DNA from: a virus
Virus record (IMG/VR): IMGVR_UViG_3300042319_001797
Span: 1 to 50,295 of that record
Reading direction: 5' to 3' (one strand)
DNA: 50,295 nt
Shown in pieces: positions 1 through 49,575 of this stretch. The notes beneath the pieces are model-generated. The model had not been told where the DNA came from, did not search any database, and worked only from the letters and a program-made list of their open reading frames with translations. Position 1 is the first letter of the stretch. Each line of letters opens with the position of its first letter. The position numbers and the translations under genes are program-made.

Positions 1-1103
1 AAGAGTCAGATTTTGTTATTTCAAATTATGATATCATTAAAAATTTTCACGACACAAAGGATAAAGAAAATTCACAAATTCTTAAATCTAAATTTGATTT
101 GGTGATTATTGACGAAGCACATTATATAAGTAATGTTCAGGCACAAAGAACTAAATTAATAAATGACATAACTGATAAAGTTAAAAAAATATGGTTGTTA
201 ACGGGGACACCAATTACTTCCCGACCAATTAATTACTATAACCTTTTAAGAATTATTGATAGTCCCGTCGCCCAAAATTGGATGGCCTATGTTATCCGTT
301 ATTGTGAAGGATATCAATTTAGTGTTGGTAAAGGAAGAAAGATTTGGAATGTTCAAGGAGCGTCAAACTTAGAAGAATTGAGAGATAGGATTTCAAAACA
401 AGTTTTACGAAGACTGAAAACTGACGTGTTAGATTTACCCGATAAAATTATTACTCCAATTTATTTAAGACTATACTCCCGATTTTATGAAGAATTAATG
501 GGAGAATATTATGATTGGTATAATAAACAAAATGAATCAAATTCAGTATCTGTTCAGTTTACCAAATTAACTAAAGTTAGACAAGTAATTGCTGAAGAGA
601 AAGTTCCTCACACAATTGAGATTGTCGAAAACATTATTGAACAGGGTAAAAAAGTTATAATATTCAGTAATTTCACTGAACCATTAAGAAAAATTTACGA
701 ACATTTTGGTAAAAAAGCAGTTTATTTAGATGGTACAACAACCAAACCAGCAAGACAAAAAGCAGTTGACGATTTCCAAGAAGATGAAAAAGTTATGGTT
801 TTTTGTGGTAATATAAAAGCAGCAGGTGTCGGGTTAACTTTAACTGCAGGAGAAGCTGTAATTATGAATGACTTGTCATTTTTACCTTCAGACCATTCAC
901 AGGCTGAAGATAGGGCTTACAGATATGGTCAAAAAAATTGTGTATCAGTGTATTACCCAATTTTTGAAAATACAATTGAAGGGATAATTTATGACATTTT
1001 AATTCGTAAGAAAAATATCTTTGAAACAGTCATGGGGGATAATATGGACAAAACCGATATGGCGTATGAAATAATGAATTCAATTAATACATTGAAAAAT
1101 TAA
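1..1103 (+). CDS. SNF2-family DEAH helicase/ATPase, 3' part (truncated by window edge)
   Basis: The reading frame is open from base 3, so the start and the Walker A motif lie outside the window. Motif II (DEAH) is at 111-122, motif III (LLTGTP) at 195-212, and an SNF2-type motif VI, EDRAYRYGQ (compare DRAHRIGQ in SMARCAL1/RapA-type proteins), at 906-932. The second RecA-like lobe contains KVIIFSNFTEP and LTAGEAVIMND, typical of the helicase C domain. It should act as an ATP-driven double-stranded DNA translocase in replication, recombination or repair of phage DNA. T4 UvsW is a functional analogue, but the RYGQ motif points to SNF2 rather than UvsW. The next gene follows 37 nt later with its own late-type promoter. 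Family call is firm; the exact role is inferred. Confidence 0.85.
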   Translation, partial: ESDFVISNYDIIKNFHDTKDKENSQILKSKFDLVIIDEAHYISNVQAQRTKLINDITDKVKKIWLLTGTPITSRPINYYNLLRIIDSPVAQNWMAYVIRYCEGYQFSVGKGRKIWNVQGASNLEELRDRISKQVLRRLKTDVLDLPDKIITPIYLRLYSRFYEELMGEYYDWYNKQNESNSVSVQFTKLTKVRQVIAEEKVPHTIEIVENIIEQGKKVIIFSNFTEPLRKIYEHFGKKAVYLDGTTTKPARQKAVDDFQEDEKVMVFCGNIKAAGVGLTLTAGEAVIMNDLSFLPSDHSQAEDRAYRYGQKNCVSVYYPIFENTIEGIIYDILIRKKNIFETVMGDNMDKTDMAYEIMNSINTLKN

Positions 1104-1140: not shown

Positions 1141-2772
1141 ATGAAATCTATTGAAAATAAGATTCAGTTAATAGAATCTCAAATTAAAGAGGAGACTCAA
1201 AATATAAGTGAGAATTTCTTAATGACCGAAATGAAGAAAATTGGAATTGAAAAATTACCATATTCTTATTCATCTTTAAAGTCCTTTATTGACCCCGAAA
1301 CAATGAATGTTCATTATAACAAACATTATAAGGGGTATGTTGACAAATTAAACGCGGCGTTAAGTAAGAAAAAATTTGGTGATTTAGATTTAGAACAAAT
1401 TGTCCAATCAATAACTAAGTTTAGTAAAGATGTTAGAAACAACGCAGGTGGTGCCTACAATCACGCATTGTTTTGGAAAATGTTATCCCCAAAACCACAA
1501 AAACCAAAAAGATTAGTTTCCGCAAGAATTGATAAAGATTTTGGTGACTTTTCATTGTTTAAGAAAAAATTTAATGAGGTAGCTAAAGAAAGATTTGGTT
1601 CAGGATGGGTTTGGTTAGTTGTAACAAGTCAAAATAAATTAAAAATTGTATCAAGTCCAAATCAAGACAATCCATTAATGAACGACTTCAAAGGAGGTGG
1701 GTATCCTATTTTAGGATTGGATTTATGGGAACATGCCTATTATTTGAAATACAAAAATAAAAGAGATGAATATGTTAAAAACTTTTGGAATGTAATTAAT
1801 TGGGATTTTGTTGAGCAATTATACAAAATGAAAGTTGAGACCAAGATAAATGAGTCACTTGTTAGTGAAATGTTATTAGAACAAGATGACTCTTCATTAT
1901 TAGATATTCCTGTTACTGAAGGATGTAGTTCTTCAGAATTAGGGGTAATTAAATCAACAATTTTCCAACATAAGTTAACCCCACAAGAAATTAAGGGTGG
2001 TAAAAAAACTCTTAAATCAATTGTTGTTTCAAACATTAGTAATCTACTTAAAAAACAATTTCCGAACAATTGGCACAATGAGACCAGAACTCATATGAGT
2101 GGTGTGTATCGTAAATCTAAAGGAGAAACTGTCAGGTCTTTACTGAATAACTTAACGTCATCATATACCGCACTTTGTTTATTAGTCAAATATGTTAACA
2201 CATATCTAACTTCGGTTGGTAAAGAGAATATTAAGTTTGGGGGAACCTACGAGGAAAATCTACTGAATTTGGAGACCTTTTTCACGGCTTTAGATTCTTT
2301 AAGACAAACAGTATTCAATCCTAACACTGAAATAAATAAAAAAATTGGGAAAATATTAACTTATTCAGACTGTATTGGAAAACGAAATGAGACCGCAGCT
2401 AAACAAATTATTGATAGAAATCTTGGTGAAAATGTCTGTAAATTAACTTCAGGATTGGGTCTTAAAAAAGATGCATTCGGAACAGATTGTACAATTGATT
2501 TAGAAGATGGAACGAAAGAAGCTCAAGTAAAACCATTTACAAGAATTATTGAAGAGGAAGGCAAAATAAAAATTTTAGGAAGTTCATCAGTTCAACTATA
2601 TAAAGTTCCGTTATTTGTATTTGTAAACGTTGTTGATAAGGTTGTTTTAATTTTTAAAAATACAGGACTAGATGTGTCAAGTGGGACATACGTATTTCCA
2701 TCAGGTTCCCTAATACATAGTTTTTCAACCAATGAATCTCTTGATTTAGAAGATTGTTCAAAATATAAATAA
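1141..2772 (+). CDS. Mn/Fe superoxide dismutase fused to a C-terminal PD-(D/E)XK-like domain; candidate packaged virion protein
   Basis: Residues about 38-230 are a full Fe/Mn superoxide dismutase. All four metal ligands are visible: H58 (MNVHYNKH), H108 (YNHALFW), D194 and H198 (LDLWEHAY). Y66 matches the gateway Tyr. GG before NHALFW together with NQDNPLM (Q175) is the Mn-type pattern. Such enzymes are usually about 200 residues; here about 310 more follow. Around E417, D449 and EAQVK (460-464) the tail resembles a PD-(D/E)XK nuclease core (inference, no close family recognised). The N-terminus reads MKSIENKIQLIE|S, and INE|S (236-239) and VTE|G (258-261) fall just after the dismutase domain. 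All three fit the T4 prohead protease rule (L/I/V)-x-E|(A/S/G), so the protein may be packaged and split in the head. A late-type promoter precedes it. The dismutase call is very firm; the rest is hypothesis. Confidence 0.9.
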   Translation: MKSIENKIQLIESQIKEETQNISENFLMTEMKKIGIEKLPYSYSSLKSFIDPETMNVHYNKHYKGYVDKLNAALSKKKFGDLDLEQIVQSITKFSKDVRNNAGGAYNHALFWKMLSPKPQKPKRLVSARIDKDFGDFSLFKKKFNEVAKERFGSGWVWLVVTSQNKLKIVSSPNQDNPLMNDFKGGGYPILGLDLWEHAYYLKYKNKRDEYVKNFWNVINWDFVEQLYKMKVETKINESLVSEMLLEQDDSSLLDIPVTEGCSSSELGVIKSTIFQHKLTPQEIKGGKKTLKSIVVSNISNLLKKQFPNNWHNETRTHMSGVYRKSKGETVRSLLNNLTSSYTALCLLVKYVNTYLTSVGKENIKFGGTYEENLLNLETFFTALDSLRQTVFNPNTEINKKIGKILTYSDCIGKRNETAAKQIIDRNLGENVCKLTSGLGLKKDAFGTDCTIDLEDGTKEAQVKPFTRIIEEEGKIKILGSSSVQLYKVPLFVFVNVVDKVVLIFKNTGLDVSSGTYVFPSGSLIHSFSTNESLDLEDCSKYK

Positions 2773-2808: not shown

Positions 2809-3930
2809 ATGTCTAAAATATCACAACCTGAAAGAAATAAGTTATTCACAAAAGTAAAACATTTACTTGGTGCACCTTTAAGAGGTATTGAATTGGAAGA
2901 TGAACAAATGGACTCTCTTTTAGAGTTTTCTATTGATGACTATTCCCAATACATCCAAGATTGGCTAACTGAATCTCAATGGTCGTCATTATATAATTTA
3001 AATTTAGATGAACAATCTTTATCTAGAGCATTTGTTACCAGGACCTTAGATTACGAAACAAGATATACTTACGCATATTCTAAAATTGTTGGTTTACAAA
3101 CTGGAGGTGATTGGGTATTAAAGAAAGATTATATTGAATTAGTTAAAGGTCAACAAATTTATGAAATACCTGCGGGAAGAGAACTCAATGAGTTACTTTG
3201 GTTTACTCCGTCAACACTTACAAATCTTTTATTTGACCCTTGGTCTTTTGGTAGTATGGGAGGACCTGGTATAGGAGGACCTGGAGGATATGCACAATTG
3301 GGTTATAGTGGGTCTTATTTCTTAATGCCGGCATTTGATATGATGTTAAGAATGCAACAAATTAACATCCAAAGGAGAATAATTGCTTCTGAACTTACAT
3401 ATCGTGTTACAGCGTTACCCGATGGTAAAAAAGCAGTTCATTTAATGAATACGCCTGGAGGTAAATTTGACTTTGGTAGTTCAACGTTTGCCGGTGGTAG
3501 AGTTTGGTATTGGTACTATGATGTAGGTCCTGAAGATAAAAATTCTTGTTTAAAGGCAAACCCTGACATTATTAGAACGCCTAATGATGTTCCTTATGAA
3601 GAACTTACATGGGATGATTTAAATAACCCTTCAAAACAATGGGTTAGAAGATGGTTTGTCGCATATTGTAAAGAAACTTTAGCAAGAGTACGAGGAAAAT
3701 ACAGTGGAAACTTGAAAACTCCAGATTCTGAATTAACTTTAGATTATACATCTTTAGCAACTGAAGCAAAAGATGAAAAAACTAAACTAATTGATGAGTT
3801 GATTGGGGCTGATGGTAGACTTACAAGATTAAAACCTGAGAAGGTAATGGAAAGAGAAGCACAAATTGCTGAAAATCTTAATAAGTCTCTTAAATTCAGA
3901 GCAGCACCTCGTCAGATTTATGTAATTTAA
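2809..3930 (+). CDS. gp13-like neck protein (putative)
   Basis: The N-terminus (LLGAPLRGIELEDEQMDSLL, then DDYSQYIQDW) resembles the start of gp13-type neck proteins of T4-like phages, which typically have LGAP...ELTDEQ and an aromatic-rich helix. A segment YIELVKGQQIYEIPAG (about 107-122) is also typical of phage connector and neck proteins. A Gly-rich loop (MGGPGIGGPGG, about 146-156) and aromatic strands (VWYWYYDVG) follow. It would sit between portal and tail, helping to close the filled head. At 373 residues it is somewhat longer than T4 gp13 (309). A late-type promoter precedes it, and the next gene starts 3 nt after its stop. I recognise the pattern rather than a diagnostic motif, so another connector component is possible. 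Confidence 0.5.
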   Translation: MSKISQPERNKLFTKVKHLLGAPLRGIELEDEQMDSLLEFSIDDYSQYIQDWLTESQWSSLYNLNLDEQSLSRAFVTRTLDYETRYTYAYSKIVGLQTGGDWVLKKDYIELVKGQQIYEIPAGRELNELLWFTPSTLTNLLFDPWSFGSMGGPGIGGPGGYAQLGYSGSYFLMPAFDMMLRMQQINIQRRIIASELTYRVTALPDGKKAVHLMNTPGGKFDFGSSTFAGGRVWYWYYDVGPEDKNSCLKANPDIIRTPNDVPYEELTWDDLNNPSKQWVRRWFVAYCKETLARVRGKYSGNLKTPDSELTLDYTSLATEAKDEKTKLIDELIGADGRLTRLKPEKVMEREAQIAENLNKSLKFRAAPRQIYVI

Positions 3931-26491: not shown

Positions 26492-27355
26492 ATGAAATTA
26501 AATAAAGAATACTTCCAATCACCATATTACTTTTTCTTGAAGGAGGATAAGGATGGGGGGACTTTGTATTATTCTATGTCAGAAACAATTGTTGAATCTA
26601 GAGTAAAAAAAGAAAAAATTAAAGTAGATAAAAGTGATTTAGAGGTCGCCAAAAAAGTTATTTCAAAAATTTTAAAAGATAAGTCACTTAAAAATTTGTC
26701 TCAACTTAAAAAAATATTAGGAATAACTTTAGGTCAAAAAAGTGAAAAAGAAGATGGTGAGATATCTGAGCTAGTTGACGCATCAGGAGCATTAAAATCG
26801 TCAAGAATACCACCTATTAACCATACTTTAACTCAATCAAGGACTATGGACCAAATCATTCTTAATAGAATGACTAATAACCCTGTAACCAGAGGTTATA
26901 GAAGATATTATGGTGAAAGTGTTGATAGTGATGTTCCCTTAAATGAAACTGATTTTTCAGACGCATTTGGGTATGAGGAGACAAAAAATATGGATGGTAA
27001 AAAAACATTCAATTATTTTGTGGACAAACTTGAAATGGACCCAATAGAAGCAATTGAAAGAACAAAACAATTTGGTAAGGACCCGACAGGTAAAAAAACA
27101 AAAAAAGCACCAAAGAAGATTAGAAAACAAAAAGGTTTTATTGATAGGATGACTTTAGCGGAAATGGAAAAAGAAAACGCCATTAAGATGATTGAAGATA
27201 TGATATCTAATAAGAAAAATAGTGATGGTGAGATTGTTGAGAAGGGAGACCCAATAAAAAAATTGTTACAGAAGAACATTCAGTCATTAAAAAATATGGC
27301 AGAAAAGAATGGAATTTCTGTTGCGGAGTTATTAAAAATGTTTAAAAGTGAATAA
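26492..27355 (+). CDS. Hypothetical, highly charged protein (probable virion or assembly protein)
   Basis: Not recognised. The 287-residue protein is Lys-rich and largely helical, with a basic patch (TGKKTKKAPKKIRKQKG, about 200-216) and C-terminal helices (KKLLQKNIQSLKNMAEKNG). It contains SETIVE|S and YYGE|S, which loosely fit the prohead protease rule but are not N-terminal. First gene of a late-type operon facing away from the big fibre; its end overlaps the next gene by 8 bases. Confidence 0.65.
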   Translation: MKLNKEYFQSPYYFFLKEDKDGGTLYYSMSETIVESRVKKEKIKVDKSDLEVAKKVISKILKDKSLKNLSQLKKILGITLGQKSEKEDGEISELVDASGALKSSRIPPINHTLTQSRTMDQIILNRMTNNPVTRGYRRYYGESVDSDVPLNETDFSDAFGYEETKNMDGKKTFNYFVDKLEMDPIEAIERTKQFGKDPTGKKTKKAPKKIRKQKGFIDRMTLAEMEKENAIKMIEDMISNKKNSDGEIVEKGDPIKKLLQKNIQSLKNMAEKNGISVAELLKMFKSE

Positions 27356-27818
27356 CACATTATACGGAAATACAATATCTTTACCGTTTGACATTGTGAA
27401 GTCATTGAAATCCGCATATGAAAAACACAAATCCTCATCAAACAATAACCAAGAAGGTTTGACTAGAAACGAAGGGTTAATTGATAAGGGAACCGCAACT
27501 TATCAACAATTAGGAAGAATTAAAAATTGGTTTGACACTTACTCAGGTCCCAAAACAACCAAAGAGTACGAATTAAATGGTGGGGACAAAATGAAAGATT
27601 GGGTAAATGATACTTTAGAAAGAATGAGAAGTGGAGATAGAACTAGCAAAGAATTCAGAAAAGAATATTTAACAGATAAAGAGACAACTAAAGATTTTAA
27701 AACCAATATATCAAACGATAATAGACCATCCCAATCACATAAAACAGGTTTGGGTAAATATGGAATAGATTTAACCGAAGATATACAAAGAATAAACGAC
27801 ATAATATCAAAAATTTAA
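27348..27818 (+). CDS. Hypothetical protein (156 aa), GTG start
   Basis: Not recognised. It begins at a GTG inside the last codons of the previous gene; no in-frame ATG occurs for about 80 codons and the sequence before that looks coding (LPFDIVKSLKSAYEKHKSS, YQQLGRIKNWFDTYSGP). It is hydrophilic and helical, with no membrane segment. Position in a late-type operon suggests a structural or assembly role. Confidence 0.6.
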   Translation: MNNTLYGNTISLPFDIVKSLKSAYEKHKSSSNNNQEGLTRNEGLIDKGTATYQQLGRIKNWFDTYSGPKTTKEYELNGGDKMKDWVNDTLERMRSGDRTSKEFRKEYLTDKETTKDFKTNISNDNRPSQSHKTGLGKYGIDLTEDIQRINDIISKI

Positions 27819-27822
27819 AATT

Positions 27823-28122
27823 ATGCCACAACCAATAATTCCTCAAGATTATTCTCAACCATTAAATGACTTAGGTCAAATTGGTGTTGAGCAAAGAAAA
27901 CAATTAACAGTAGTTAATACGTTAAAAAAGGACGCTAACGAATATTCCAGTACAAACCCTGACGCATTGGCCGATGGTGATGAAATGGGAAGAGGGACGG
28001 GCGGATTTTTGGACGTATATAATTTGGGAGCAGGAACATTTACTGACATCAAAGAAAGACAAATTGAAACAGCGGTGAATGAATTTAAACCTAACAACCC
28101 ATACACAACACCAACCGTATAA
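27823..28122 (+). CDS. Hypothetical protein (99 aa)
   Basis: Not recognised. It is Pro/Asn/Gln-rich (MPQPIIPQDYSQPLNDLGQI, FKPNNPYTTPTV at the end) with a Gly-rich centre (GRGTGGFLDVYNLGAGTF), so probably partly disordered. It lies 4 nt after the previous gene and its stop codon overlaps the next ATG by one base, so it belongs to the same late-type transcript and is likely a minor virion protein. Confidence 0.6.
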   Translation: MPQPIIPQDYSQPLNDLGQIGVEQRKQLTVVNTLKKDANEYSSTNPDALADGDEMGRGTGGFLDVYNLGAGTFTDIKERQIETAVNEFKPNNPYTTPTV

Positions 28123-28535
28123 TGAAACTCACATCAACACTTAAAAGTTTAATAACTGAAGCTGCCGCTTTGGACCAAGTTGTTGATGCTGTTAAAAAAA
28201 GAAAAAAAATCATCATATATTACGATGGGGACGAACCAGGTGGTAAAGGATTAAGAGAGATTGAACCCGTTTGTATTGGTAGAACTAAAAAAAGAAAAAA
28301 CTTGGTAGTTAGAGCTTGGGATTCTGAAGGGGCGTCTCATAGAGGATTTTTAGGTACAAGACCTATGCCAGGTTGGAGATTATTTAGATTAGATAAAATC
28401 TTAACATTTAAAGAGACGGGAGAAAACTTTGACCAACCAAGACCTAATTTTAATTTTAATGGTGACAAAAGTTTAGATGATATTATTATTATTGCTCAAT
28501 TTGACAATAATCCCGAAGAACAAAATTTAGCTTAA
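28122..28535 (+). CDS. WYL-domain-like protein with capsid-targeting-type N-terminus
   Basis: After MKLTSTLKSLITE|AAALD the protein is essentially one domain: VDAVKKRKKIIIYYDG, GLREIEPVCIGRTKKRKNL, VVRAWD, PGWRLFRLDKIL. This follows the order of a WYL domain (basic helix, IxYxG strand, R-x-I-E-P, FRLDRI), a nucleic-acid or nucleotide-sensing fold usually found in bacterial regulators. The usual DNA-binding helix-turn-helix is absent. The first 13 residues match the T4 internal-protein targeting pattern ending L/I-x-E|A, so the protein may be packaged and injected. WYL assignment is moderate; packaging is inferred. Confidence 0.6.
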   Translation: MKLTSTLKSLITEAAALDQVVDAVKKRKKIIIYYDGDEPGGKGLREIEPVCIGRTKKRKNLVVRAWDSEGASHRGFLGTRPMPGWRLFRLDKILTFKETGENFDQPRPNFNFNGDKSLDDIIIIAQFDNNPEEQNLA

Positions 28536-28536
28536 T

Positions 28537-29115
28537 ATGAGTAACAGTTTAATGGAAAAATTAATGATTTCTAAAGCAATTATGCAGAAGTCAGACACGA
28601 TAAAAAGAGGAAATGTATCAGAGTCGTCTTATGATACTCCAAGAGCAATAAACGCACCACAGCTAGAAACATTTCAACCTGTTGCGGGTAACTACAATAT
28701 TCCTCAAGAATTTATACAAGAATCTCAAGTAACTAAGGCTCCACAGGTTGCCACTCAAGACAGAATTGTTAACTCAAAATTACCTGATGAAATTAAAAGA
28801 TTAATGATTGAAAATCCAATAGAACAACCGACATCTATGTATGGTTCTTCAGTAATAAGTGAGGAAATGGTTGAGAGAGCTGCAAAATTAATGGGAACTG
28901 AAAGACCTAAACAAGAACAAAGAAGAGTTGTTTCTGAGTCAACATCAAATGGGGATTTAAAACAAATGTTAAGAGAAGTTGTTGAAGAGGTTTTAAGAGA
29001 AAACGGAGTTATTGCTGAGTCAAGCCAAAAGGCAAATGAAACAATGACCTTTAAAGTTGGTGAACATATTTTTGAAGGTAAGATTACAAAAATCAAAAAA
29101 GTTAGAAAACAATAA
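28537..29115 (+). CDS. Hypothetical virion-type protein (192 aa)
   Basis: Not recognised. A low-complexity, Gln/Ser/Pro-containing N-terminal part carries several possible protease sites (VSE|SS, IQE|SQ, VSE|ST, IAE|SS). A helix LKQMLREVVEEVLRENG (about 140-156) and a short beta domain FKVGEHIFEGKITKIKKVRK form the end. Many (L/I/V)-x-E|S sites in one protein recall prohead core proteins that are cut to small peptides. It is the last gene of the 26492 operon. Confidence 0.6.
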   Translation: MSNSLMEKLMISKAIMQKSDTIKRGNVSESSYDTPRAINAPQLETFQPVAGNYNIPQEFIQESQVTKAPQVATQDRIVNSKLPDEIKRLMIENPIEQPTSMYGSSVISEEMVERAAKLMGTERPKQEQRRVVSESTSNGDLKQMLREVVEEVLRENGVIAESSQKANETMTFKVGEHIFEGKITKIKKVRKQ

Positions 29116-29121
29116 TCGGTA

Positions 29122-29153
29122 TTGATAGTATCCATTTCTGTTATTATATTTTG
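29122..29153 (+). promoter_or_regulatory. Weak host-type promoter candidate before the second glycan cluster
   Basis: TTG at 29122-29124 and TATATTTTG at 29145-29153, one base off the TAnnTTTG consensus, with acceptable spacing. No TATTTAT motif is present in the 51-nt gap, so the run starting at 29167 may be expressed earlier than the fibres. The match is imperfect. Confidence 0.3.
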
Positions 29154-29166
29154 AAAAAAATATATA

Positions 29167-30387
29167 ATGGCAGACAAAATTAATGTTTTAGTATTACCAA
29201 GTGACAAAACAGGTGTTGGTAAATTCAGGTCAGTTGACCCTCACATAGTTCTACAAAGATTATACCCTGACGATTTTCACGTAGATATTCTTTATGATTT
29301 TAATGCAAATGATATTAACTTTTGGAAAAAATATCAGATAGTTCATTTCCATCGTAGTATTGGTCAAAATTATGAGCAGGCAGTCAATTTAATTAAAGGA
29401 CTTAAAAGTTTAGGTATAGTTACAATTATGGACTTGGATGATTATTGGTTACCAACCAAAGAACATCCGATTCACTCATTAATTGTTCAGAATAAAATTA
29501 ATGAAAAAATTGTTAACAATCTAAAAGTTGCCGACTACGTGATGACAACAACCGAAATGTTTGCAAATGAGATTCGCAAAATTAACAAAAACGTTGTCGT
29601 AGTTCCCAATTCAATTGACCCTAGTGAACCTCAGTTTCAGTATGAAAAAACTGAAAGTGATTTATTAAGAATTGGTTGGTTAGGAGGTTCGTCACATTTG
29701 CACGATTTAATGTTATTAGAAGGTTCTTTCAACAAATTACGTGGTGATAGACATAAGTTCCAAACATATTTGGCGGGATTTGATACTCGTGGTGCGGTTA
29801 CAGAAATTAATCGTGATACTGGAGAACAGACACAAAGAGCAATTAAACCTCACGAAACTGTATGGTATCAATATGAAAAAATTATGACTGATAACTATTA
29901 CGGACTTGACCAAAATTATGTTGACTTTTTGATGAAGTTTAAAGAAGAACCATACCCAAATATGGATAATCAACAATACGTTAGAGTTTGGACAAGACCT
30001 GTTAATACGTACGCAGCGAATTATAAAAGATTTGATGTGTCATTAGCACCAATCAAAAATCACATTTTTAATCGTGTTAAATCACAATTGAAAGTTATTG
30101 AAGCGGGGTTCCATAAAAAAGCATTAATCGCATCAAACATAGGTCCTTACACTATTGATTTAAAACATTGTTTGGATAAGGGTAATTTTGTGTCAGGAGG
30201 AAATGCGTTTTTAGTTGATGAAAACAAAAACCATTCGGATTGGTCAAAGTACATAAAAAAATTAATTGACAATCCTAACTTGGTTACTGATTTAGGTGAA
30301 TCACTTTACGAAACAGTTAAAGACAAATACCATATTAATACAACAACAAAATTCAGAAGTGAATTCTACAAATCTTTAGTAAAATGA
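29167..30387 (+). CDS. GT4-like glycosyltransferase (GT-B fold)
   Basis: Residues 1-130 form the acceptor lobe (INVLVLPSDKTGVGKFR, YQIVHFHRSIGQN, GIVTIMDLDDYWLP). The donor lobe has VVVPNSIDP, LLRIGWLGGSSHLHDL and a C-terminal SQLKVIEAGFHKKALIASNI, with VIEAGFHKK in place of the usual E-x7-E motif. This is the typical layout of retaining GT4-type glycosyltransferases. It heads a plus-strand run with about nine genes, several for glycan transfer. The acceptor (DNA base, virion protein or lipid-linked sugar) cannot be told from sequence. Overlaps the exonuclease by 4 bases. Confidence 0.8.
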   Translation: MADKINVLVLPSDKTGVGKFRSVDPHIVLQRLYPDDFHVDILYDFNANDINFWKKYQIVHFHRSIGQNYEQAVNLIKGLKSLGIVTIMDLDDYWLPTKEHPIHSLIVQNKINEKIVNNLKVADYVMTTTEMFANEIRKINKNVVVVPNSIDPSEPQFQYEKTESDLLRIGWLGGSSHLHDLMLLEGSFNKLRGDRHKFQTYLAGFDTRGAVTEINRDTGEQTQRAIKPHETVWYQYEKIMTDNYYGLDQNYVDFLMKFKEEPYPNMDNQQYVRVWTRPVNTYAANYKRFDVSLAPIKNHIFNRVKSQLKVIEAGFHKKALIASNIGPYTIDLKHCLDKGNFVSGGNAFLVDENKNHSDWSKYIKKLIDNPNLVTDLGESLYETVKDKYHINTTTKFRSEFYKSLVK

Positions 30388-31082
30388 TAACAACCGCATT
30401 AGACCATATTTTATTTATTGACATTGAAACGGTGGGAGTTTCAAGTACATATGACCAATTTTGTATTGATTACTCTGAACTTTGTTTTCAGTATAAGAAC
30501 TATTACGATTGGTTTCAGAAAAGATTTGCAGAAGACGCTCATTTAGATTTGGGAGAAATGTTTAATAAACGTTCCGCATTGGTCCCTGAGTTTGCAAAAA
30601 TAATTTGCGTATCAGTTGCCTTTGTTGACCCAAAAGGGGAGTTAAGAAAACAAACTTTCTTCAATTCTGATGAAAAAATTCTTCTAAAAGAAGTTAATAG
30701 TTTGTTGGATAAGGTTAACAAATTAAATTTTATTCTTTGTGGACATAACTTAAAGAATTTTGATATCCCTATGTTAGCAAAACGAATGATTATCAATGGA
30801 ATTCGTCCGTCTCAGATGTTACCATCTCATGATACTAAGCCTTGGGAAATTAAAGCCGTTGATACCAAAGAGTTTTGGCAGTATGGACAGTTCGGAGCAA
30901 TTTCATCTTTGGAATTAATGTGTGTTAGTTTAGGAGTTCCTTCATCAAAGACTATGGAAGTAACTGGAGATTCAGTTCACAAATCATATTGGTTTGATGA
31001 GAAGTATGACCAAATTAAAGAGTATTGTGAAAAAGATGTTGAGTGTTTGGTTGAAGTAATAAAAAAAATTAAAAGTTTATAA
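30384..31082 (+). CDS. DnaQ/PolB-like 3'-5' exonuclease (DEDDy type)
   Basis: Catalytic blocks are in order: ILFIDIETVG (D-x-E, Exo I), LCGHNLKNFDIPML (Exo II, N-x-x-FD), and YDQIKEYCEKDVECL (Exo III, Y-x3-D). The segment AISSLELMCVSLGVPSSK before Exo III matches the predicted PolB-related exonucleases often found in phages and bacteria. It should degrade single-stranded or mismatched 3' ends, for repair or recycling of host DNA. Its start overlaps the previous gene by 4 bases. Confidence 0.88.
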   Translation: MITTALDHILFIDIETVGVSSTYDQFCIDYSELCFQYKNYYDWFQKRFAEDAHLDLGEMFNKRSALVPEFAKIICVSVAFVDPKGELRKQTFFNSDEKILLKEVNSLLDKVNKLNFILCGHNLKNFDIPMLAKRMIINGIRPSQMLPSHDTKPWEIKAVDTKEFWQYGQFGAISSLELMCVSLGVPSSKTMEVTGDSVHKSYWFDEKYDQIKEYCEKDVECLVEVIKKIKSL

Positions 31083-31083
31083 T

Positions 31084-31668
31084 ATGAGTGAGAAACATTA
31101 CAATTTAAAAGATTATCAAAAATATTTTAATGATGACCCTAAAGAAAATTATAAAAATGCAATGAAGTCTCTTGCTGGTCAAATTAAAGAAATTCAAGAA
31201 AATTTTGACATGTCAAATTACGCACCTAAGAAAAGGTTAGAATATAAAATTCTTAGTCCATTGGCAACAACCCCAAAATATAATTATCAAACAGATTCTG
31301 GTTTTGATTTATGTTCAACCGAATCAGTATCAATACCTCCTCTTTCAAGGGCAATAATCGGGACGGGATTATCATTTAATTTACCCGATGGAACGGAACT
31401 TCAAATTAGAAGTCGTAGTGGATTAGCCGCAAAATACGGAATTATGGTTTTAAATTCACCCGGCACGATAGATTGTGGATACACAGGTGAAGTTAAAATT
31501 GTCCTATTTAACTCATCTCAAGAACCATTCCAAGTTGAGCGTGGAATGAGAATCGCTCAAGCGGTTTATGCCCATTGTATGAATGGAAAATGGGTTGAAC
31601 TTGAGGAAATTGATGAGATTGAAAATAAAGACAGAAACGAAAACGGATTCGGAAGTACCGGAATATAA
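31084..31668 (+). CDS. dut: dUTPase with N-terminal extension
   Basis: All five trimeric dUTPase motifs are present: TDSGFDL (1), RSRSGLAAKYGI (2), NSPGTIDCGYTGEV (3), ERGMRIAQAV (4) and NGFGSTG (5). It converts dUTP to dUMP, keeping uracil out of phage DNA and feeding dTMP synthesis. About 55 residues precede the usual start (YKILSP); this charged helix (KDYQKYFNDDPKENYKNAMK) is not part of the family fold. One base separates it from the exonuclease gene, fitting a DNA-metabolism pair within a run otherwise rich in glycosyltransferases. Confidence 0.95.
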   Translation: MSEKHYNLKDYQKYFNDDPKENYKNAMKSLAGQIKEIQENFDMSNYAPKKRLEYKILSPLATTPKYNYQTDSGFDLCSTESVSIPPLSRAIIGTGLSFNLPDGTELQIRSRSGLAAKYGIMVLNSPGTIDCGYTGEVKIVLFNSSQEPFQVERGMRIAQAVYAHCMNGKWVELEEIDEIENKDRNENGFGSTGI

Positions 31669-31695
31669 AAAAAATAAAATAAAATAAATAAAACA

Positions 31696-32241
31696 ATGGA
31701 ACATTTTTTTGAATCTATTAATGGATGGTCATCCATGAATGACCAAGGAAATCTTATTAAATTAATTATTAAAGAGATTGATAAACCCTTTTTAAATATT
31801 GCGGAAATTGGAGTATATATGGGTAGAGGGACATCAATTTGGAATGTTGAGCTAATTAATCATGGAATTGATTATGAATATTTGGCGATTGACCATTTTA
31901 CCGGTTCTACTGAACATGATAATACTATTGATTACCATACTATTACTTTAGAGAATTTAAAACCGATTATTGATAAAATTAAAGTAATTAAAAATGATTC
32001 ATTAAATGAATGTACAAAATACGATAATGAGTATTTTGATGTTGTTTACATCGACGCATCTCACGACTATGAAAGTGTTAAAGAAGATGTTTTAAATTGG
32101 TTACCAAAAGTTAAAAAAGGTGGAATTATCTGTGGTGATGACTACACGCCAGGGTGGCCAGGAGTTGTTAAAGCAGTAAATGAAATTTTTAATAATGAAG
32201 TGAATAAAGTTGGACATCAACAATGGTGGGTAAAAATATAA
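31696..32241 (+). CDS. Class I SAM-dependent methyltransferase (Methyltransf_24 type)
   Basis: Motif I is IAEIGVYMGRGTSIW, followed by YLAIDHFTG, FDVVYIDASHDYESVKEDV and KKGGIICGDDYTPGWPGV. The same order and near-identical motifs occur in the middle domain of the 11627-13675 protein (FIYIDGAHDYDNVKLD, GGIIAGHSY), pointing to a shared ancestor and re-use as a single domain. It probably methylates a sugar. A 27-nt A-rich gap precedes it. Confidence 0.85.
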   Translation: MEHFFESINGWSSMNDQGNLIKLIIKEIDKPFLNIAEIGVYMGRGTSIWNVELINHGIDYEYLAIDHFTGSTEHDNTIDYHTITLENLKPIIDKIKVIKNDSLNECTKYDNEYFDVVYIDASHDYESVKEDVLNWLPKVKKGGIICGDDYTPGWPGVVKAVNEIFNNEVNKVGHQQWWVKI

Positions 32242-32245
32242 TATT

Positions 32246-32971
32246 ATGAGAATTGCGTTAGTATGTGTTGCAAAAAATGAAGATAGGTATATAGATGAAT
32301 GGATTAAATATAATTTTAAATTAGGATTTAATGACATTTACATTTATCACAATGATTGGGAATTTGAATATGAACATCCTAATGTTCATTTAACTCCAAT
32401 TAAAGGTAAAGGAATACAAAGATTTGCATATAATGATTGTTACCAAAAAATTAAATGGGTGTATGATTGGGTTGCGTTTTTTGATATTGATGAATTCTTA
32501 GTTTTACATAAACATGAAACAATTGGTGATTTTTTATCTGAATATAATCATCATCCTGCGGTTGGAATTAATTGGTTATTATTTGGGGATAATAATCTAA
32601 ATGAGGTAAATGATTCTGACTATGGACTAATAGAAAGATTTACTCGTAGACAAAATTCAGTCAATCCTCATGTTAAATCTATAGTAAATACATCATACGC
32701 CCATAATCACATTGATGTACATACTCCAAATTCATCAGTATCGGACACTAATCATAAAGAATTTTCAGGTCCATATAACCATGAAGGTCCTATTGATGTT
32801 GCCCAATTAAATCATTATTTTTGTAAAACGATTGAAGAGTTTCGTGAAAAAGTTGATAGGGGTAGGGCGGACCATCACGCAATGATTAGAAAATTATCAG
32901 AATTTGATGACCATAATTTTAATGATGTTGAGGATTTTACCGCTCGTGACTTTATGTACGATAATAAATAA
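32246..32971 (+). CDS. GT92/Glyco_tranf_2_4-like glycosyltransferase
   Basis: Starts MRIALVCVAKNEDRYIDEWI, the hallmark N-terminus of this group (A-K-N-E-x-x-Y-I-x-E-W-x-x-Y-x-x-x-G). WVAFFDIDEFLVL supplies the DxD metal site and GINWLLFGDNN with the conserved HxxxxR-like region follows. C-terminal LNHYFCKTIEEFREKVDRGR fits as well. A GT-A fold inverting transferase of about 240 residues, complete. It follows the methyltransferase by 4 nt. Confidence 0.85.
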   Translation: MRIALVCVAKNEDRYIDEWIKYNFKLGFNDIYIYHNDWEFEYEHPNVHLTPIKGKGIQRFAYNDCYQKIKWVYDWVAFFDIDEFLVLHKHETIGDFLSEYNHHPAVGINWLLFGDNNLNEVNDSDYGLIERFTRRQNSVNPHVKSIVNTSYAHNHIDVHTPNSSVSDTNHKEFSGPYNHEGPIDVAQLNHYFCKTIEEFREKVDRGRADHHAMIRKLSEFDDHNFNDVEDFTARDFMYDNK

Positions 32972-32979
32972 TTTAAATT

Positions 32980-34521
32980 ATGATAACAATAATATATTCA
33001 ACACATAAAGATGAGAATTATAACAATAATTTTAAATCGCATTTAAAAAAGACAATTGGGGTAAAAGAATATGAAATCTTAGAATATACCAATCACAATC
33101 AATATTCTTTATCCGAACTTTATAATAAAGGAATTCATAAATCAAAATATAATATAATAGTTTGTTGTCATAATGATATTAGATTGGAAACTGGATGGGG
33201 TAAAAAACTAATAAAGGATTTTACCAAAAATCCTGAATTTGGCATAATTGGAAAAGCGGGTTCTTGTTATTTTCCGTCATCAGGTATCTACTGGGAAAGA
33301 ATGAACCAAACAATGGTTGGCCAGGTTTATCATGAACCAAAAGGACAGAAAAAATGGTTAAATAAATACTCAAACAAATTCCCATTTTTAATACCTGTAG
33401 TAACGATTGACGGTTTATTTATTTCATTTGATAAAACAAAAATCAAACACACTTTTGATGAATCAATTGGTAGATTCCACTTTTACGACCATTTATTCTG
33501 TATCCCCAATCACTTAGAGGGTATTAAAATTGGGGTGACAACTTCATTTGAAATTACACACGAGTCTGTTGGTCAACCAAACCAAGAGTTTTATGAGAGT
33601 AAGGATAAATTTTTACAGAAATGGGGAGATAAGTTACCTTTAGATTTAAAACCTGAGTCAGTTCCGTTTGAAAAAACGAGTCCTAAGAAATTAAAAGGTA
33701 AGGATAAAGTTGCAATAATTATTCCAACAAAAGGTAATTTACAACTATTATTTGATTGTATTAATTCATTTTATTCTGAATGTGACTCATCTAATTTTAC
33801 AATATTTGTTGCCGACACCGGCTCAACAGATGAGGAAAAAGAAGAATTAAAGAAATTTTTGTCACTTAAAGATAATGTTAAATTAATTGAGTACAATTAT
33901 TACAATTTTGCAAAAATTAATAATGATGTTGTAAAAAATTATGTAACTGATGAGTTCAATTATTTATTATTTTGTAACAATGATGTTAAAATATTAAATG
34001 ATGTCATTTATAAAATGGTTAATATTTTTAATTCAAACCATAACACCGGAACAGTTGGGGCTAGATTGTATTATGGTGATAACACATTGCAACATAATGG
34101 TATAGTAGTAATGGTATCTCAACCCGATAATAAATTAAGAGTATCTCATGATAATTTAGGAAGTTATTATAAATCTACAACAGGTGTTAAAAAATGTGTT
34201 GGAAGTACGGGAGCATTATTAATGATTAGAAAAAAAATATTTGAAAAAATATCAGGTTTTAATGAAAATTATAATGAATGTTTTGAAGACGTTGAGCTTA
34301 ATATTGTTTGTGAATCAATTGGGTTGAAGAATGTTTTTGACGGTACATCGGTGGCATATCACTATGAATCCAAAACAAGAAATAAAAATAAAGACAAGAT
34401 GGCCAACGAATACTCAGACTGGTTAACTCTTGAAAAAAAAATAAATGAGAATATTATTTTCTTATCGGATAATATTACATACACTATAATTAATGACAAG
34501 AAAAAAAACTACACCAAGTAA
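32980..34521 (+). CDS. Bifunctional glycosyltransferase: two GT-A (GT2-like) domains
   Basis: Domain 1 (about 1-215) has a GT-A start (MITIIYSTHKDENYNNNFKS), IIVCCHNDIRLETGW and GIIGKAGSCYFPSSG. Domain 2 (about 240-500) is a standard GT2: VAIIIPTKGNLQLLFDCINS, FVADTGSTDEEK, NYLLFCNNDVKIL (DxD site), GTVGARLYYGD and CFEDVELNI. Together they could add two sugars alternately, as in chain polymerases. It overlaps the phoH-like gene by 29 bases, so the two are translated from one message. Confidence 0.85.
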   Translation: MITIIYSTHKDENYNNNFKSHLKKTIGVKEYEILEYTNHNQYSLSELYNKGIHKSKYNIIVCCHNDIRLETGWGKKLIKDFTKNPEFGIIGKAGSCYFPSSGIYWERMNQTMVGQVYHEPKGQKKWLNKYSNKFPFLIPVVTIDGLFISFDKTKIKHTFDESIGRFHFYDHLFCIPNHLEGIKIGVTTSFEITHESVGQPNQEFYESKDKFLQKWGDKLPLDLKPESVPFEKTSPKKLKGKDKVAIIIPTKGNLQLLFDCINSFYSECDSSNFTIFVADTGSTDEEKEELKKFLSLKDNVKLIEYNYYNFAKINNDVVKNYVTDEFNYLLFCNNDVKILNDVIYKMVNIFNSNHNTGTVGARLYYGDNTLQHNGIVVMVSQPDNKLRVSHDNLGSYYKSTTGVKKCVGSTGALLMIRKKIFEKISGFNENYNECFEDVELNIVCESIGLKNVFDGTSVAYHYESKTRNKNKDKMANEYSDWLTLEKKINENIIFLSDNITYTIINDKKKNYTK

Positions 34522-35230
34522 AGAGTCGTCTTTTGCGACTTCTGAGACTAATCCAAAAATCTCTAAAAAAGACCAAATACGGTCAATAGTTAAGAGAACT
34601 AAGAATAAATTTCTAACTGAAAGTCAGAAAGAATATTATGATAAATTATATAATAACCAAATCACAATTTGTTCAGGACCTGCGGGTGTTGGTAAAAGTT
34701 ATATCGCAATGAAAGCTGCGGTTGATTTAATTCACGACAACGATAATTCATTTGAAAAGATTATTATTGTTAGACCAGCGGTTGAAGCTGAAGAGAAATT
34801 AGGTTCATTACCTGGTAATTTAGAGGAAAAATTAGACCCATATATTTTTCCATCATATTATCTCTTAAATAAGATTATTGGGAAAGAGGCAAGAGAAAAA
34901 CTAAAACAAATTGAAGTTATTGAAGTTTTTGCATTAGCTTATATGAGAGGTATGAACATTGATAATTCAATCTTAATATTTGAGGAAGCGCAAAACTCAT
35001 CTCCAAGTCAAATGAAACTTCTATTGACAAGAATTGGGTTTAATAGTAAATTTTTTATATCTGGAGATATTGAACAAACTGACAGATATAAAGATAAAAG
35101 ACATTCAGGATTATTTGACGCAATTGAAAAATTTAGTGATGTTCCTGATATTGGAGTTCACAAATTTGGAGATGAAGACGTTGTTAGGAATCCTTTAATT
35201 TCTAAAATATTAAGAAAATACGACGCATGA
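34493..35230 (+). CDS. phoH: PhoH-like ATPase
   Basis: Walker A is CSGPAGVGKSYIAMKA and the acidic Walker B-type motif ILIFEEAQN, with IIIVRPAVEAEEKLGSLPG and SKFFISGDIEQTDRY between and after. These are the signature blocks of PhoH proteins, common in T4-like phages of many hosts. A 55-residue polar N-terminal extension precedes the domain. The family is linked to RNA or nucleotide metabolism, but its phage role is not settled. The 29-base overlap with the preceding gene supports the ATG chosen, though a later start would also be possible. Confidence 0.9.
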   Translation: MTRKKTTPSKESSFATSETNPKISKKDQIRSIVKRTKNKFLTESQKEYYDKLYNNQITICSGPAGVGKSYIAMKAAVDLIHDNDNSFEKIIIVRPAVEAEEKLGSLPGNLEEKLDPYIFPSYYLLNKIIGKEAREKLKQIEVIEVFALAYMRGMNIDNSILIFEEAQNSSPSQMKLLLTRIGFNSKFFISGDIEQTDRYKDKRHSGLFDAIEKFSDVPDIGVHKFGDEDVVRNPLISKILRKYDA

Positions 35231-36085: not shown

Positions 36086-36086
36086 T

Positions 36087-38730: not shown

Positions 38731-38739
38731 GTTAATAGG

Positions 38740-38747
38740 TATTTATA
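38740..38747 (+). promoter_or_regulatory. Candidate late promoter TATTTATA
   Basis: TATTTATA only 4 nt before the ATG at 38752, within the 21-nt gap after the sigma factor gene. The short distance implies a leaderless mRNA, a downstream start for the first gene, or that the site mainly serves 39117 onward. Confidence 0.4.
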
Positions 38748-38751
38748 GATT

Positions 38752-41018: not shown

Positions 41019-41022
41019 AATT

Positions 41023-42762: not shown

Positions 42763-42774
42763 TTAAAAAAGGTA

Positions 42775-47709: not shown

Positions 47710-49575
47710 TTATCTTAATTCTCTCAAGTCAAATGTACGAACACCGTCAACTTGGATACGTCCGTAGAAACGGTTGTTAACCATTTTCTTAGCGTAACGT
47801 GTCATGATACCCTTGATAGGTGTAAAGTTGAATGGGTTATACATAGTTGGAGTTAATTGAAGTGGTACGTATGGAGCGTAGATGTAACCAGTATCCAACA
47901 AAGATGTTCCTTTGTGACCAATCAACACAGTGTTTGGTGGGAAGTATGGGTCACGGTATACTTGGTAACGACCACTTAAAGTACCAACTCTTTCAATACC
48001 CATGTTGTATTGGTCTTGCTCAGGAGCTGCGTTTGATACGTGGAAGTATTCCAAGTCATCAAAAATTGCACTGATTTCAGAAGATACAACAATCCAGTTA
48101 GCTCCACCTCTTAAAGTAGACTTGTGGATTTGAGCTGAAATTTGGTTGATAGCAGTAATCAACGTTTGGTTCCAATCCTTTTGAGTATATGGAACTGCGT
48201 TGTTACCCAGTCTCTTCCATCCGTTGTAATCCCAACGTAATGTCCAAGCGGCACCTTTACGTAAGTCACGTAAGATTTCACGGTCAATCTCTGCAGCTAC
48301 TTGCTCAGAAAGTAATGCTGTCAATTCAGCTTCTGCGTCAATGTTGTGGAACGCTGCCACGTCTTGAGCCATTTCTGGAGACCATTGTGCTCTTAATTTT
48401 CTTTCAGTTACAGAAACTGTTACAGATTCCAAATCAAAAGAAACTTCACCAATTTTGTCTTCAAACTCTAACTCTTCGTATCTACGGTAAACAGCTGTAA
48501 ATGCTTCGTTCGCACCTGTTAATGTCTCCCAAGCAACTTCCATTCCTTGATATCCATCTAATGTATCCGCAGAACAAGTCAAACATACTGGACATTGTAA
48601 ATCAACTTCAAGATAAATACATCCATTACCTGAACAAATATCCCAGAATTTACCACCTGAACCTGTTGTTGGGAACGTAGTTGAATTCCAAGAACCGTAT
48701 TGAACCATTCCTTTACCATATTGTTGTGTAACAACACGGAAAGGAACAACTGATGAACCATTTAAACAAGATGCCGTCCAAGATTCAGCATCAGTAACGT
48801 CAGATGTTGGAACAATTCTCAAGTCAGATAAGAAAGTTTCAGTATCCATTTCGTTACCGTCAGGACCGATTAATTTACCGTCTCCAACATTAGTGAACCC
48901 ACAAACTTGAATTAACGCCTTTCTGATTGTTGTACCATTATATGCCGCAGTTGCAGTTGCCCCTGTAGCTAATGTTCCGTTTGACCAAGCAACTAAGGTA
49001 GCGTTTGCAGTAACTGCTGACCACTGACCTTTTGAATAGTCAAATAAACCAGCTGGGTCTAAACTAGGTTCGTTACCTTCGTAGAACAAATCATAAAGGT
49101 TCTTAGCGTAGTAATTAGTACCTGCTGTTCCACCACCTTGAGGATATCCATTATCAGGATTTTGTGGGTTCTCATAGTTACCTGGAGAACCTACTGGAGC
49201 CCAATGCTCTCCTGAACGAGTTGCAGTTGCTCCACTGTAACCTTGGATACGTGGTACGAAGTAGAACAATTTACCAATTGGTAAGTTCATAGCTTGTACA
49301 GATACGATATCGTTAGCTAACAATTTAGAGAATACACGTCTTACGATAGGGAATACAACAGTTTCAAAAGAACCTGATGAATCTGTAGACGATGCTTCGT
49401 TAATCAAATGTGACGCTTGGTTTTCATACAATTGTGCAACATTTTCTTTTAGGTGGCCTTTAAGACCTTCTAGGAACCCTAATTTGTCCCATTTGTTAAT
49501 AGTATCTTCTTTGATAACTTTAAGGTGCTTAAGACCGATGTTACCAACAAGACCTGATTCTAATAATGCTCCCAT
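47710..49575 (-). CDS. 23: Major capsid protein (T4 gp23-like)
   Basis: The 621-residue protein has the gp23 plan: a cleavable N-terminal region, then SGSFETVVFPIVRRVFSKLL and AMNLPIGKLFYFVPRIQGYS, a Gly/Ala-rich insertion, and the C-terminal ...LTPTMYNPFNFTPIKGIMTR, YAKKMVNNRFYGRIQVDGV. LINE|ASSTDSS puts the likely prohead protease cut after E60 (E65 in T4). Codon choice appears more GC-rich and uniform than in the fibre genes, as expected of the most abundant protein. It lies 27 nt after the core protein gene, as in T4 (22-23). No late-type motif was found in that gap, so it may be expressed from further upstream outside the window. Confidence 0.95.
   Translation of the reverse strand: MGALLESGLVGNIGLKHLKVIKEDTINKWDKLGFLEGLKGHLKENVAQLYENQASHLINEASSTDSSGSFETVVFPIVRRVFSKLLANDIVSVQAMNLPIGKLFYFVPRIQGYSGATATRSGEHWAPVGSPGNYENPQNPDNGYPQGGGTAGTNYYAKNLYDLFYEGNEPSLDPAGLFDYSKGQWSAVTANATLVAWSNGTLATGATATAAYNGTTIRKALIQVCGFTNVGDGKLIGPDGNEMDTETFLSDLRIVPTSDVTDAESWTASCLNGSSVVPFRVVTQQYGKGMVQYGSWNSTTFPTTGSGGKFWDICSGNGCIYLEVDLQCPVCLTCSADTLDGYQGMEVAWETLTGANEAFTAVYRRYEELEFEDKIGEVSFDLESVTVSVTERKLRAQWSPEMAQDVAAFHNIDAEAELTALLSEQVAAEIDREILRDLRKGAAWTLRWDYNGWKRLGNNAVPYTQKDWNQTLITAINQISAQIHKSTLRGGANWIVVSSEISAIFDDLEYFHVSNAAPEQDQYNMGIERVGTLSGRYQVYRDPYFPPNTVLIGHKGTSLLDTGYIYAPYVPLQLTPTMYNPFNFTPIKGIMTRYAKKMVNNRFYGRIQVDGVRTFDLRELR

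What the first reader, a model, noticed from the sequence alone, without database searches (positions are those of the whole stretch)
1141..2772. Superoxide dismutase fused to a nuclease-like domain, with protease sites on both sides of the dismutase
The sequence shows a complete Mn-type dismutase (H58, H108, D194, H198, Q175) followed by about 310 extra residues with E417, D449 and EAQVK 460-464 in a PD-(D/E)XK-like arrangement. LIE|S at residue 12, INE|S at 238 and VTE|G at 260 all fit the T4 prohead protease rule. The simplest reading is a packaged polyprotein cut in the head into an injected dismutase and a second effector. Packaging a dismutase could blunt an oxidative host defence at DNA entry. 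I know of no described phage system of this kind.
Basis: partly seen in the sequence, partly recalled or inferred. Interest (0 to 1): 0.88.

Follow-up and report, generated by a model that had tools for sequence, protein, structure and literature searches.

The report
Phage polyprotein: dismutase joined to nuclease
A group of T4-like phages carries one gene for a superoxide dismutase joined to a nuclease-like protein, with conserved cut sites which suggest that the phage's own capsid protease separates the two inside the virus head so that both can be injected into the host.

Summary
Window 1141-2772 encodes 543 residues: leader, Mn-type superoxide dismutase (37-229), disordered linker, 282-residue C-terminal domain. 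The fusion is conserved in related phages (90 distinct versions seen) at one locus between an SNF2 helicase and a neck protein. The dismutase ligands are invariant. The C-terminal domain is confidently predicted and matches PD-(D/E)XK nucleases over residues 406-535, with invariant E417, D449, Q462, K464; E460 is not conserved. Relatives carry an S77 prohead protease and the same type of site in their capsid protein. New: 19 distinct versions lack the dismutase; most simply it was lost in frame twice, leaving leader and nuclease domain, and a cut site in 18 of 19. Best reading: a capsid-targeted polyprotein cut during head maturation into an ejected dismutase and an ejected nuclease-like protein. 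Packaging, cleavage and both activities are inferred; the anti-oxidative role is speculative. A new variant of T4-type ejected internal proteins.

The parts
1141..2772 (+). 543-aa fusion gene: leader - Mn-type superoxide dismutase - cut-site linker - PD-(D/E)XK-like domain
1141..1248 (+). N-terminal leader, residues 1-36, predicted helix 2-34; candidate capsid-targeting peptide
   Evidence: a similar leader is kept in versions without the dismutase
1168..1179 (+).
   Evidence: 2 of 36
1222..1233 (+). MTE|M, residues 28-31; the column is [IL]xE in 35 of 36, glutamate in 36 of 36
1249..1827 (+). Mn-type superoxide dismutase domain, residues 37-229
   Evidence: Pfam and PDB matches; VIA Z 19.0, 2.5 A over 175 residues; ligands 45 of 45 and 90 of 90
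1846..1857 (+). INE|S, residues 236-239, conserved prohead-protease-type site
   Evidence: [IL]xE in 33 of 36; lies in the only segment of 3 or more residues with pLDDT below 50, 236-256
1873..1884 (+). LLE|Q, residues 245-248; one residue before the column (248) at which many relatives have their second linker site (LSE|G, ITE|G, LKE|S)
1912..1923 (+).
1924..2769 (+). C-terminal domain, residues 262-543
   Evidence: predicted alone with pLDDT 93.8, pTM 0.88
2356..2745 (+). PD-(D/E)XK-like core, residues 406-535
   Evidence: model residues 145-274 align with nucleases, best Z 7.7
2389..2391 (+). E417, invariant
2485..2487 (+). D449, invariant
2524..2532 (+). Q462-V-K464, invariant Q and K
3..1103 (+). 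SNF2-type helicase, conserved upstream neighbour (cut by the window start)
2809..3930 (+). head-tail adaptor (PHROG 211, E 7.3e-10), conserved downstream neighbour
47710..49575 (-). gp23-type major capsid protein of the same phage
   Evidence: PF07068 E 1.1e-63
49393..49404 (-). INE|A at capsid residues 58-61, the likely propeptide cut; INE|A also in 8 of 8 capsid loci of relatives

Best explanation
It is a virion-cargo polyprotein of T4-like phages. (1) The helical leader takes the protein into the prohead core, as T4 capsid-targeting sequences do (inferred). (2) The S77 prohead protease cuts after [IL]xE at the end of the leader and at one or two sites in the disordered linker (sites shown, cutting inferred). 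(3) The mature head then holds a free Mn-superoxide dismutase and a separate PD-(D/E)XK-like protein of about 282-300 residues, both ejected with the DNA (inferred). (4) The nuclease-like protein is the constant part and the dismutase a removable one: two lineages have it without the dismutase (shown by sequence; that these are losses is the simplest reading of the tree). (5) The nuclease-like protein most likely acts on DNA at entry (host or rival DNA, or phage ends), and the dismutase removes superoxide at entry (both inferred; the dismutase role is the weakest step).
For: Fusion conserved: 90 distinct proteins with the dismutase ligands and E-D-QxK. Sites: 48 canonical motifs in 928 linker residues of 36 sequences against 4.2 in shuffled linkers, although the linker is the fastest-evolving part (median dN/dS 0.144, against 0.038 dismutase and 0.068 C-domain; 14 of 17 close pairs used, 11 for the linker). 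Only residues 236-256 fall below pLDDT 50. S77 protease over cut-off in 7 of 12 relatives' contigs, one of them (G002) with a fusion identical to the window's. Capsid protein with INE|A at residue 60 in the window and in 8 of 8 related loci. Dismutase-less versions: 19 distinct, [IL]xE in the leader in 18, canonical in 15; two separate places of the tree; same neighbours in 7 of 7 sampled; no Sod_Fe_C match in 6 of 6 such contigs. L153 is 203 codons shorter than its close relative L037, in frame, exactly over the dismutase. C-domain model matches PD-(D/E)XK enzymes. T4 precedents: motif L/I-X-E and targeting leaders, and packaging of leader-fused foreign enzymes including EcoRI and staphylococcal nuclease (PMC9026906, passages and one section).
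Against: No virion proteomics or cleavage data. The residue after the cut is E, D, T, Q or M at many sites: 8 of 90 fusions have no canonical [IL]xE[AGS] in the linker, and at residue 30 only 1 of 36 has A, G or S next. One dismutase-less version (L199) has no [IL]xE in its leader and three more only with T next; the divergent fusion L249 lacks the residue-30 site. The gene lies beside a head-tail adaptor, so a structural or head-completion role is open. Best nuclease Z is 7.7, under the tool's own caution line of 8, and residues 262-405 are barely tested by that search. 5 of 12 contigs gave no S77 match, nor did the window (all fragments). A packaged nuclease would have to be kept from cutting the phage's own DNA.
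Confidence: 0.62

Rival explanations
1. Structural or head-completion protein: the C-terminal domain trims or holds DNA ends at the neck during head completion, and the linker sites are maturation cuts; the dismutase is an optional addition that is not ejected.
For: The head-tail adaptor is the next gene in 32 of 33 sampled loci; a paralogue of the domain lies just downstream of the prohead protease in one relative, G009.
Against: The leader, and short leaders on other proteins of these phages, look like cargo tags; a structural part would not obviously need a dismutase released by two cuts. PHROG scan of the domain gave no named head-completion family (at most 2 of 43 members per family, all unnamed).
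Confidence: 0.18
2. Ordinary auxiliary metabolic gene: the whole protein is made during infection and the dismutase protects the infected cell from superoxide; the linker motifs are incidental and the fusion stays intact in the cytoplasm.
For: Dismutase strongly conserved and probably active; [quoted passage not shown]
Against: Motifs in the linker are about eleven-fold over shuffled linkers; leader and, in 18 of 19, a cut site are kept where the dismutase is absent; gene placed beside a head-tail adaptor.
Confidence: 0.12
3. Virion-protective role: packaged and cut as in the best explanation, but the dismutase works inside the head, shielding the packaged DNA, and the C-terminal domain is a catalytically dead DNA-binding fold.
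For: Related phage groups are described from lakes (PMC9723584, PMC4360716, passages); a dead fold would avoid cutting the phage's own DNA. The habitat of the window and of the contigs is not shown by the tools.
Against: E417, D449, Q462 and K464 are invariant even in paralogues at 22-23% identity to the window, which argues for catalysis.
Confidence: 0.08

Closest known systems
T4 internal (ejected) proteins IPI-IPIII and Alt, with capsid-targeting sequence and gp21 processing
   Same: N-terminal leader ending in L/I-X-E; S77-type prohead protease; gp23-type capsid protein with the same type of site
   Different: Here one polypeptide seems to carry two enzymes separated by a linker with cut sites. 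The T4 passages read name no natural dismutase or nuclease cargo, though engineered EcoRI and staphylococcal nuclease fusions were packaged. The leader here is about 30 residues; its similarity to T4's was not tested
Head proteins of giant phage SPN3US cut by its prohead protease, including ejection proteins
   Same: Eight propeptides cut after a motif reminiscent of that of T4 gp21 (PMC7411985, passages)
   Different: The passages mention no dismutase; several propeptides there are long (111-130 residues)
Bacterial Mn-superoxide dismutase (for example Sphingobacterium sp. T2)
   Same: Metal ligands and second-shell residues; best PDB sequence match, E 4.2e-61
   Different: Extra leader and C-terminal nuclease-like domain
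PD-(D/E)XK nucleases (I-Ssp6803I, SPARDA nuclease, Hjc resolvases, DpnI)
   Same: Core fold; glutamate in a helix, aspartate at the start of one strand and QxK within the next
   Different: No convincing sequence-level family match; the first 140 or so residues of the domain were not assigned
UniProt A0A6J5L953 'superoxide dismutase [uncultured Caudovirales phage]', 501 aa
   Same: Its predicted structure contains the same C-terminal domain (E 4.7e-18), so a fusion of this kind is already deposited
   Different: Named only as a dismutase

Membership tests
Fe/Mn superoxide dismutase, Mn type | Both Pfam halves and the ligands His, His, Asp, His | tested here: met
   90 of 90; 45 of 45
Fe/Mn superoxide dismutase, Mn type | Mn-type second shell (glycine pair 103-104, Q175) | tested here: met
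   90 of 90; that these mark the Mn type is recalled, from no call
Fe/Mn superoxide dismutase, Mn type | Enzyme activity and metal bound | not testable with these tools
   needs purified protein
PD-(D/E)XK nuclease superfamily | Core fold | tested here: met
   Of the top 24 VIA rows (Z 3.6-7.7), 20 are enzymes that I recall as PD-(D/E)XK and 4 are NhoI/Eco15I, whose domain I am not sure of; best Z 7.7, so moderate support
PD-(D/E)XK nuclease superfamily | Catalytic E/D..D..(D/E/Q)xK on helix and strands | tested here: met
   E417, D449, Q462, K464 invariant in 43 rows including paralogues; placed on helix and neighbouring strands in the model. The motif rule is recalled; residue-by-residue superposition on a known active site was not done
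PD-(D/E)XK nuclease superfamily | DNA cleavage | not testable with these tools
   needs purified protein
T4-type ejected internal proteins | Leader ending in L/I-X-E | tested here: met
   Residue 30: [IL]xE in 35 of 36 and 86 of 90; the window itself has MTE there
T4-type ejected internal proteins | S77 prohead protease in the same phage | tested here: met
   7 of 12 related contigs over cut-off, one with an identical fusion; none in the window itself, which is a fragment
T4-type ejected internal proteins | Present in the virion, cut there, and ejected | not testable with these tools
   needs proteomics
T4-type ejected internal proteins | Sequence similarity of the leader to the T4 targeting sequence | not tested
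   no T4 leader was fetched
T4-like (Far-T4) phages | gp23-type capsid protein | tested here: met
   PF07068 E 1.1e-63; nearest isolates by capsid include Microcystis phage Mel-JY01, Flavobacterium phage immuto and Rhodothermus phage RM378. Membership in the Far-T4 clade itself was not tested by a tree
bS21-encoding Bacteroidetes phages (PMC9723584) | bS21 gene by the prohead protease, on the opposite strand | tested here: inconclusive
   bS21 in 9 of 12 related contigs, 7 over cut-off, and on the opposite strand within 1 kb of S77 in 6 of 6 contigs where both were found; but no match on G001 and G002, the contigs with the identical fusion, and G002 does hold the S77 gene

The most novel reading that the evidence does not exclude
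These phages ship enzymes as cut-apart polyproteins: one targeting leader delivers two enzymes, which the prohead protease separates, and a dismutase is injected to blunt a superoxide-based host response at DNA entry while a nuclease acts on DNA. The same phages tag dozens of other proteins with short leaders ending in [IL]TE|S, that is, a broad packaged effector arsenal.
Probability: 0.3. Interest if true: 0.88.

Novelty: new variant of a known kind. Interest (0 to 1): 0.7.

Why it matters
If right, it is an antioxidant enzyme delivered by a phage particle and a polyprotein strategy for phage cargo, in a group of uncultured phages with at least 591 matching viral contig stretches. It makes two questions directly testable: whether superoxide limits phage DNA entry, and how many proteins these phages inject. 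Natural versions with and without the dismutase at one locus are a ready-made comparison. The leader rule offers a sequence handle for listing packaged proteins in uncultured T4-like phages.

Tried and rejected
Rejected: chance motifs (shuffle and column ranking; the only other column above 90% [IL]xE is E197, beside the dismutase ligand H198). Not supported: dismutase moved elsewhere in dismutase-less phages (no Sod_Fe_C match in 6 of 6 contigs; contigs may be incomplete). Rejected: E460 as part of the motif.

Led nowhere: Pfam and PHROG on the C-terminal domain (only weak scattered matches; MjaI restriction endonuclease in 1 of 35 members, E 0.002), PDB by sequence (best E 0.081), INPHARED with the window's C-terminal domain (no match up to E 10), GTDB genomes (15 pattern matches, no relative; one degenerate pattern only, so weak), Flavobacterium phage immuto and Microcystis phage Mel-JY01 whole records with the domain profile (no match in 2 of 2). 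Foldseek against PDB gave no match at E 0.001 or better (best I-Ssp6803I, E 3.6e-3). Residues 262-405 had no assignment, but the tool calls such parts barely tested. Literature: full-text searches for dismutase with phage-encoded and virion, with prohead protease, with AMG and T4-like, with virion proteome, with jumbo phage, and with phage defence and NADPH oxidase (lists capped at 10-25 titles) showed no paper on a packaged dismutase in titles, abstract starts and the few passages read; subscription papers and preprints are not held. A text search for one leader string found no paper.

Rows dropped before counts: one search went from 80 loci to 65 distinct sequences and 36 at under 88% identity; one search dropped domain stretches under 200 residues (the L086 paralogue among them) and rows above 95% identity (112 to 81); one search used 14 of 17 pairs; one search left out 18 minus-strand paralogue hits and L086 of 246 hits.

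Full report
What is there. Window 1141-2772 (+) encodes 543 residues. Both halves of the Fe/Mn dismutase family match within residues 37-226, and Mn-dismutases of known structure match, best a Sphingobacterium enzyme, E 4.2e-61. The whole-protein model (mean pLDDT 81.1, pTM 0.53) has a long N-terminal helix, the dismutase fold (VIA Z 19.0, 2.5 A over 175 residues; pLDDT only about 61-68 over residues 31-100), a stretch below pLDDT 50 at 236-256, and a confident C-terminal part.

Relatives. The best 80 were kept: 79 match from residue 1 to 526-543 and one (L011) to 429, where its contig ends, at 43-100% identity. They are 65 distinct sequences (window included), 36 at under 88% identity. Over the loci fetched up to, 90 distinct fusion proteins and 19 distinct dismutase-less proteins were counted. 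No record among 50,697 phage records covers 80% of the protein; 29 match, all within the dismutase part. A fusion is nevertheless in UniProt under the name superoxide dismutase (A0A6J5L953).

Catalytic residues. In 45 relatives aligned without regard to these residues H58, H108, Q175, D194, H198 and E417 are invariant, and D449, Q462, K464 in the 44 that reach so far. In the 90 distinct fusions the same holds, with H62, Y66 and W196; E460 is E in 3 of 90. That larger set was sorted with patterns covering some dismutase residues, but all versions sorted out are at most 309 aa. In 43 C-terminal domains that include paralogues at 22-23% identity, E417, D444, D449, Q462 and K464 remain invariant. 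Median dN/dS over 14 close pairs: dismutase 0.038, C-domain 0.068, leader 0.111, linker 0.144 (11 pairs).

C-terminal fold. Predicted alone with 43 rows: pLDDT 93.8, pTM 0.88; E417 lies in a helix, D449 at the start of one strand, Q462 and K464 within the next. Foldseek against PDB: best I-Ssp6803I, E 3.6e-3, none at 0.001 or better. VIA: the top 24 rows are restriction enzymes, SPARDA nucleases, a homing endonuclease and Holliday junction resolvases, Z 3.6 to 7.7, over residues 406-535. Residues 262-405 remain unassigned and barely tested.

Cut sites. T4 gp21 cuts after L/I-X-E (PMC9026906, section read). In the 36 sequences [IL]xE[AGS] occurs 48 times in 928 linker residues, 10 in 1295 leader residues, 2 in 6980 dismutase residues and 12 in 9504 C-terminal residues; 33 of 36 have at least one in the linker. 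Shuffling each linker gives 4.2. By column, [IL]xE is found at residue 30 in 97%, at 238 in 92% and at 248 in 67%; residue 197 (94%) sits beside a dismutase metal ligand. 32 of 36 have both the 238 site and a second linker site. Against: residue 12 in 2 of 36; residue 30 is followed by A, G or S in 1 of 36; in the larger set 8 of 90 lack a canonical linker site, although 84 of 90 have two or more [IL]xE.

Machinery. The window is a 50,295-base virus record with a gp23 capsid gene at 47710-49575. The capsid protein has INE|A at residue 60, as do 8 of 8 related capsid loci (these come from 8 of 12 contigs searched). The window has no S77 protease match; 7 of 12 related contigs do, among them G002, whose fusion is identical to the window's. 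bS21 is found in 9 of 12 relatives, 7 over cut-off, which fits the Bacteroidetes phages of PMC9723584 (passages), but not in G001 and G002, so the window's own place in that group is open. By capsid the nearest isolates include Microcystis phage Mel-JY01, Flavobacterium phage immuto and RM378, in line with Far-T4 phages (PMC4360716, passages; that text has no mention of dismutase).

Modularity. A search with the C-terminal domain kept 80 loci, 74 of them new; 32 of the 74 encode a version without a dismutase: leader, then for example LSE|S, then the domain. Of 19 distinct ones 18 keep [IL]xE and 15 a canonical site. In a tree of 81 domains they fall in two places, a 13-row clade and L153 inside a fusion clade; each is nested among fusions, so loss is the simplest reading, though the root is uncertain and the tool flags long branches. 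L153 and its close relative L037 (flanking DNA 83% and 90% identical) differ by 203 codons in frame: the dismutase and the 238 site are gone, while INE|M, ISE|G and the domain stay. Gene order is the same with and without the dismutase: the helicase directly upstream in 32 of 33 sampled loci and the adaptor directly downstream in 32 of 33, including 7 of 7 dismutase-less ones. None of 6 dismutase-less contigs (54-318 kb) has a Sod_Fe_C match; 6 of 6 fusion contigs have exactly one.

The domain elsewhere. Paralogues with other N-terminal parts occur in the same phages: a protein of 471-501 aa on the opposite strand 2.4-3.4 kb upstream, and a 318-aa protein just downstream of the S77 protease in G009. 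They start with short leaders such as MKIVITE and MKITISE. In half of contig G009, 29 of 230 ORFs start with such a leader against 2.8 expected after shuffling; the pattern was written after seeing examples. Over 117 representative ORFs of the loci, [IL]xE[AGS] is only about twice as dense in the first 30 residues as after residue 60 (4.3 against 1.9 per 1000).

Mechanism. The reading that fits best is a capsid-targeted polyprotein cut in the head. T4 heads accept leader-fused foreign enzymes, EcoRI and staphylococcal nuclease among them (PMC9026906, passage), and the latter digests DNA in the particle on addition of calcium (PMC3012670, passage), so a packaged, restrained nuclease is feasible. 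What the two enzymes do after entry is not shown. That the dismutase is missing in two lineages while the rest is kept suggests that it is useful in some settings only, and that the nuclease-like domain is the constant function.

Noticed in passing
L264-L271 (half of contig G009); window 44316-44990 and 44971-45441: Many otherwise dissimilar-looking ORFs start with leaders such as MKFLITES or MKKVIRLTESDL, 29 of 230 against 2.8 expected after shuffling (pattern written after seeing examples; for the window ORFs); possibly a packaging tag with [IL]TE|S cut sites.
   Followed up: partly
L038:2121-3623 (-), L019:2160-3638 (-), L041:2140-3624 (-): Paralogous C-terminal nuclease-like domain fused to a different N-terminal part (a CxxC zinc-ribbon-like stretch, by eye, and a MVYYNLHKHTFSV domain); that N-terminal part also exists alone, about 182 aa, at the same place in L010 and L004.
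   Followed up: partly
L086:2360-3313 (+) / L260:1477-2430 (+): 318-aa paralogue with leader MKITISE|GQ directly downstream of the S77 prohead protease gene.
   Followed up: partly
window 28122-28535, 45893-46780 (-), 41023-41235: Further window ORFs with [IL]xE[AGS] in the first 20 residues, candidates for processed head proteins.
   Followed up: no
L083:86-790 (+): 235-aa ORF close to the S77 gene on the contig with the identical fusion, with LIE|S at residue 16; a possible core or cargo protein.
   Followed up: no
window 26492-45892: PHROG names a glycosyltransferase (29167-30387), 3'-5' exonuclease, dUTPase, DNA methyltransferase and PhoH; 7 of the 10 ORFs scanned in 36087-45892 had no PHROG match at E 0.01.
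   Followed up: no
UniProt A0A8D9CCA0 (BFVD): 1113-aa protein of an uncultured marine phage whose predicted structure contains the same C-terminal domain (E 1.9e-13); a possible larger polyprotein.
   Followed up: no
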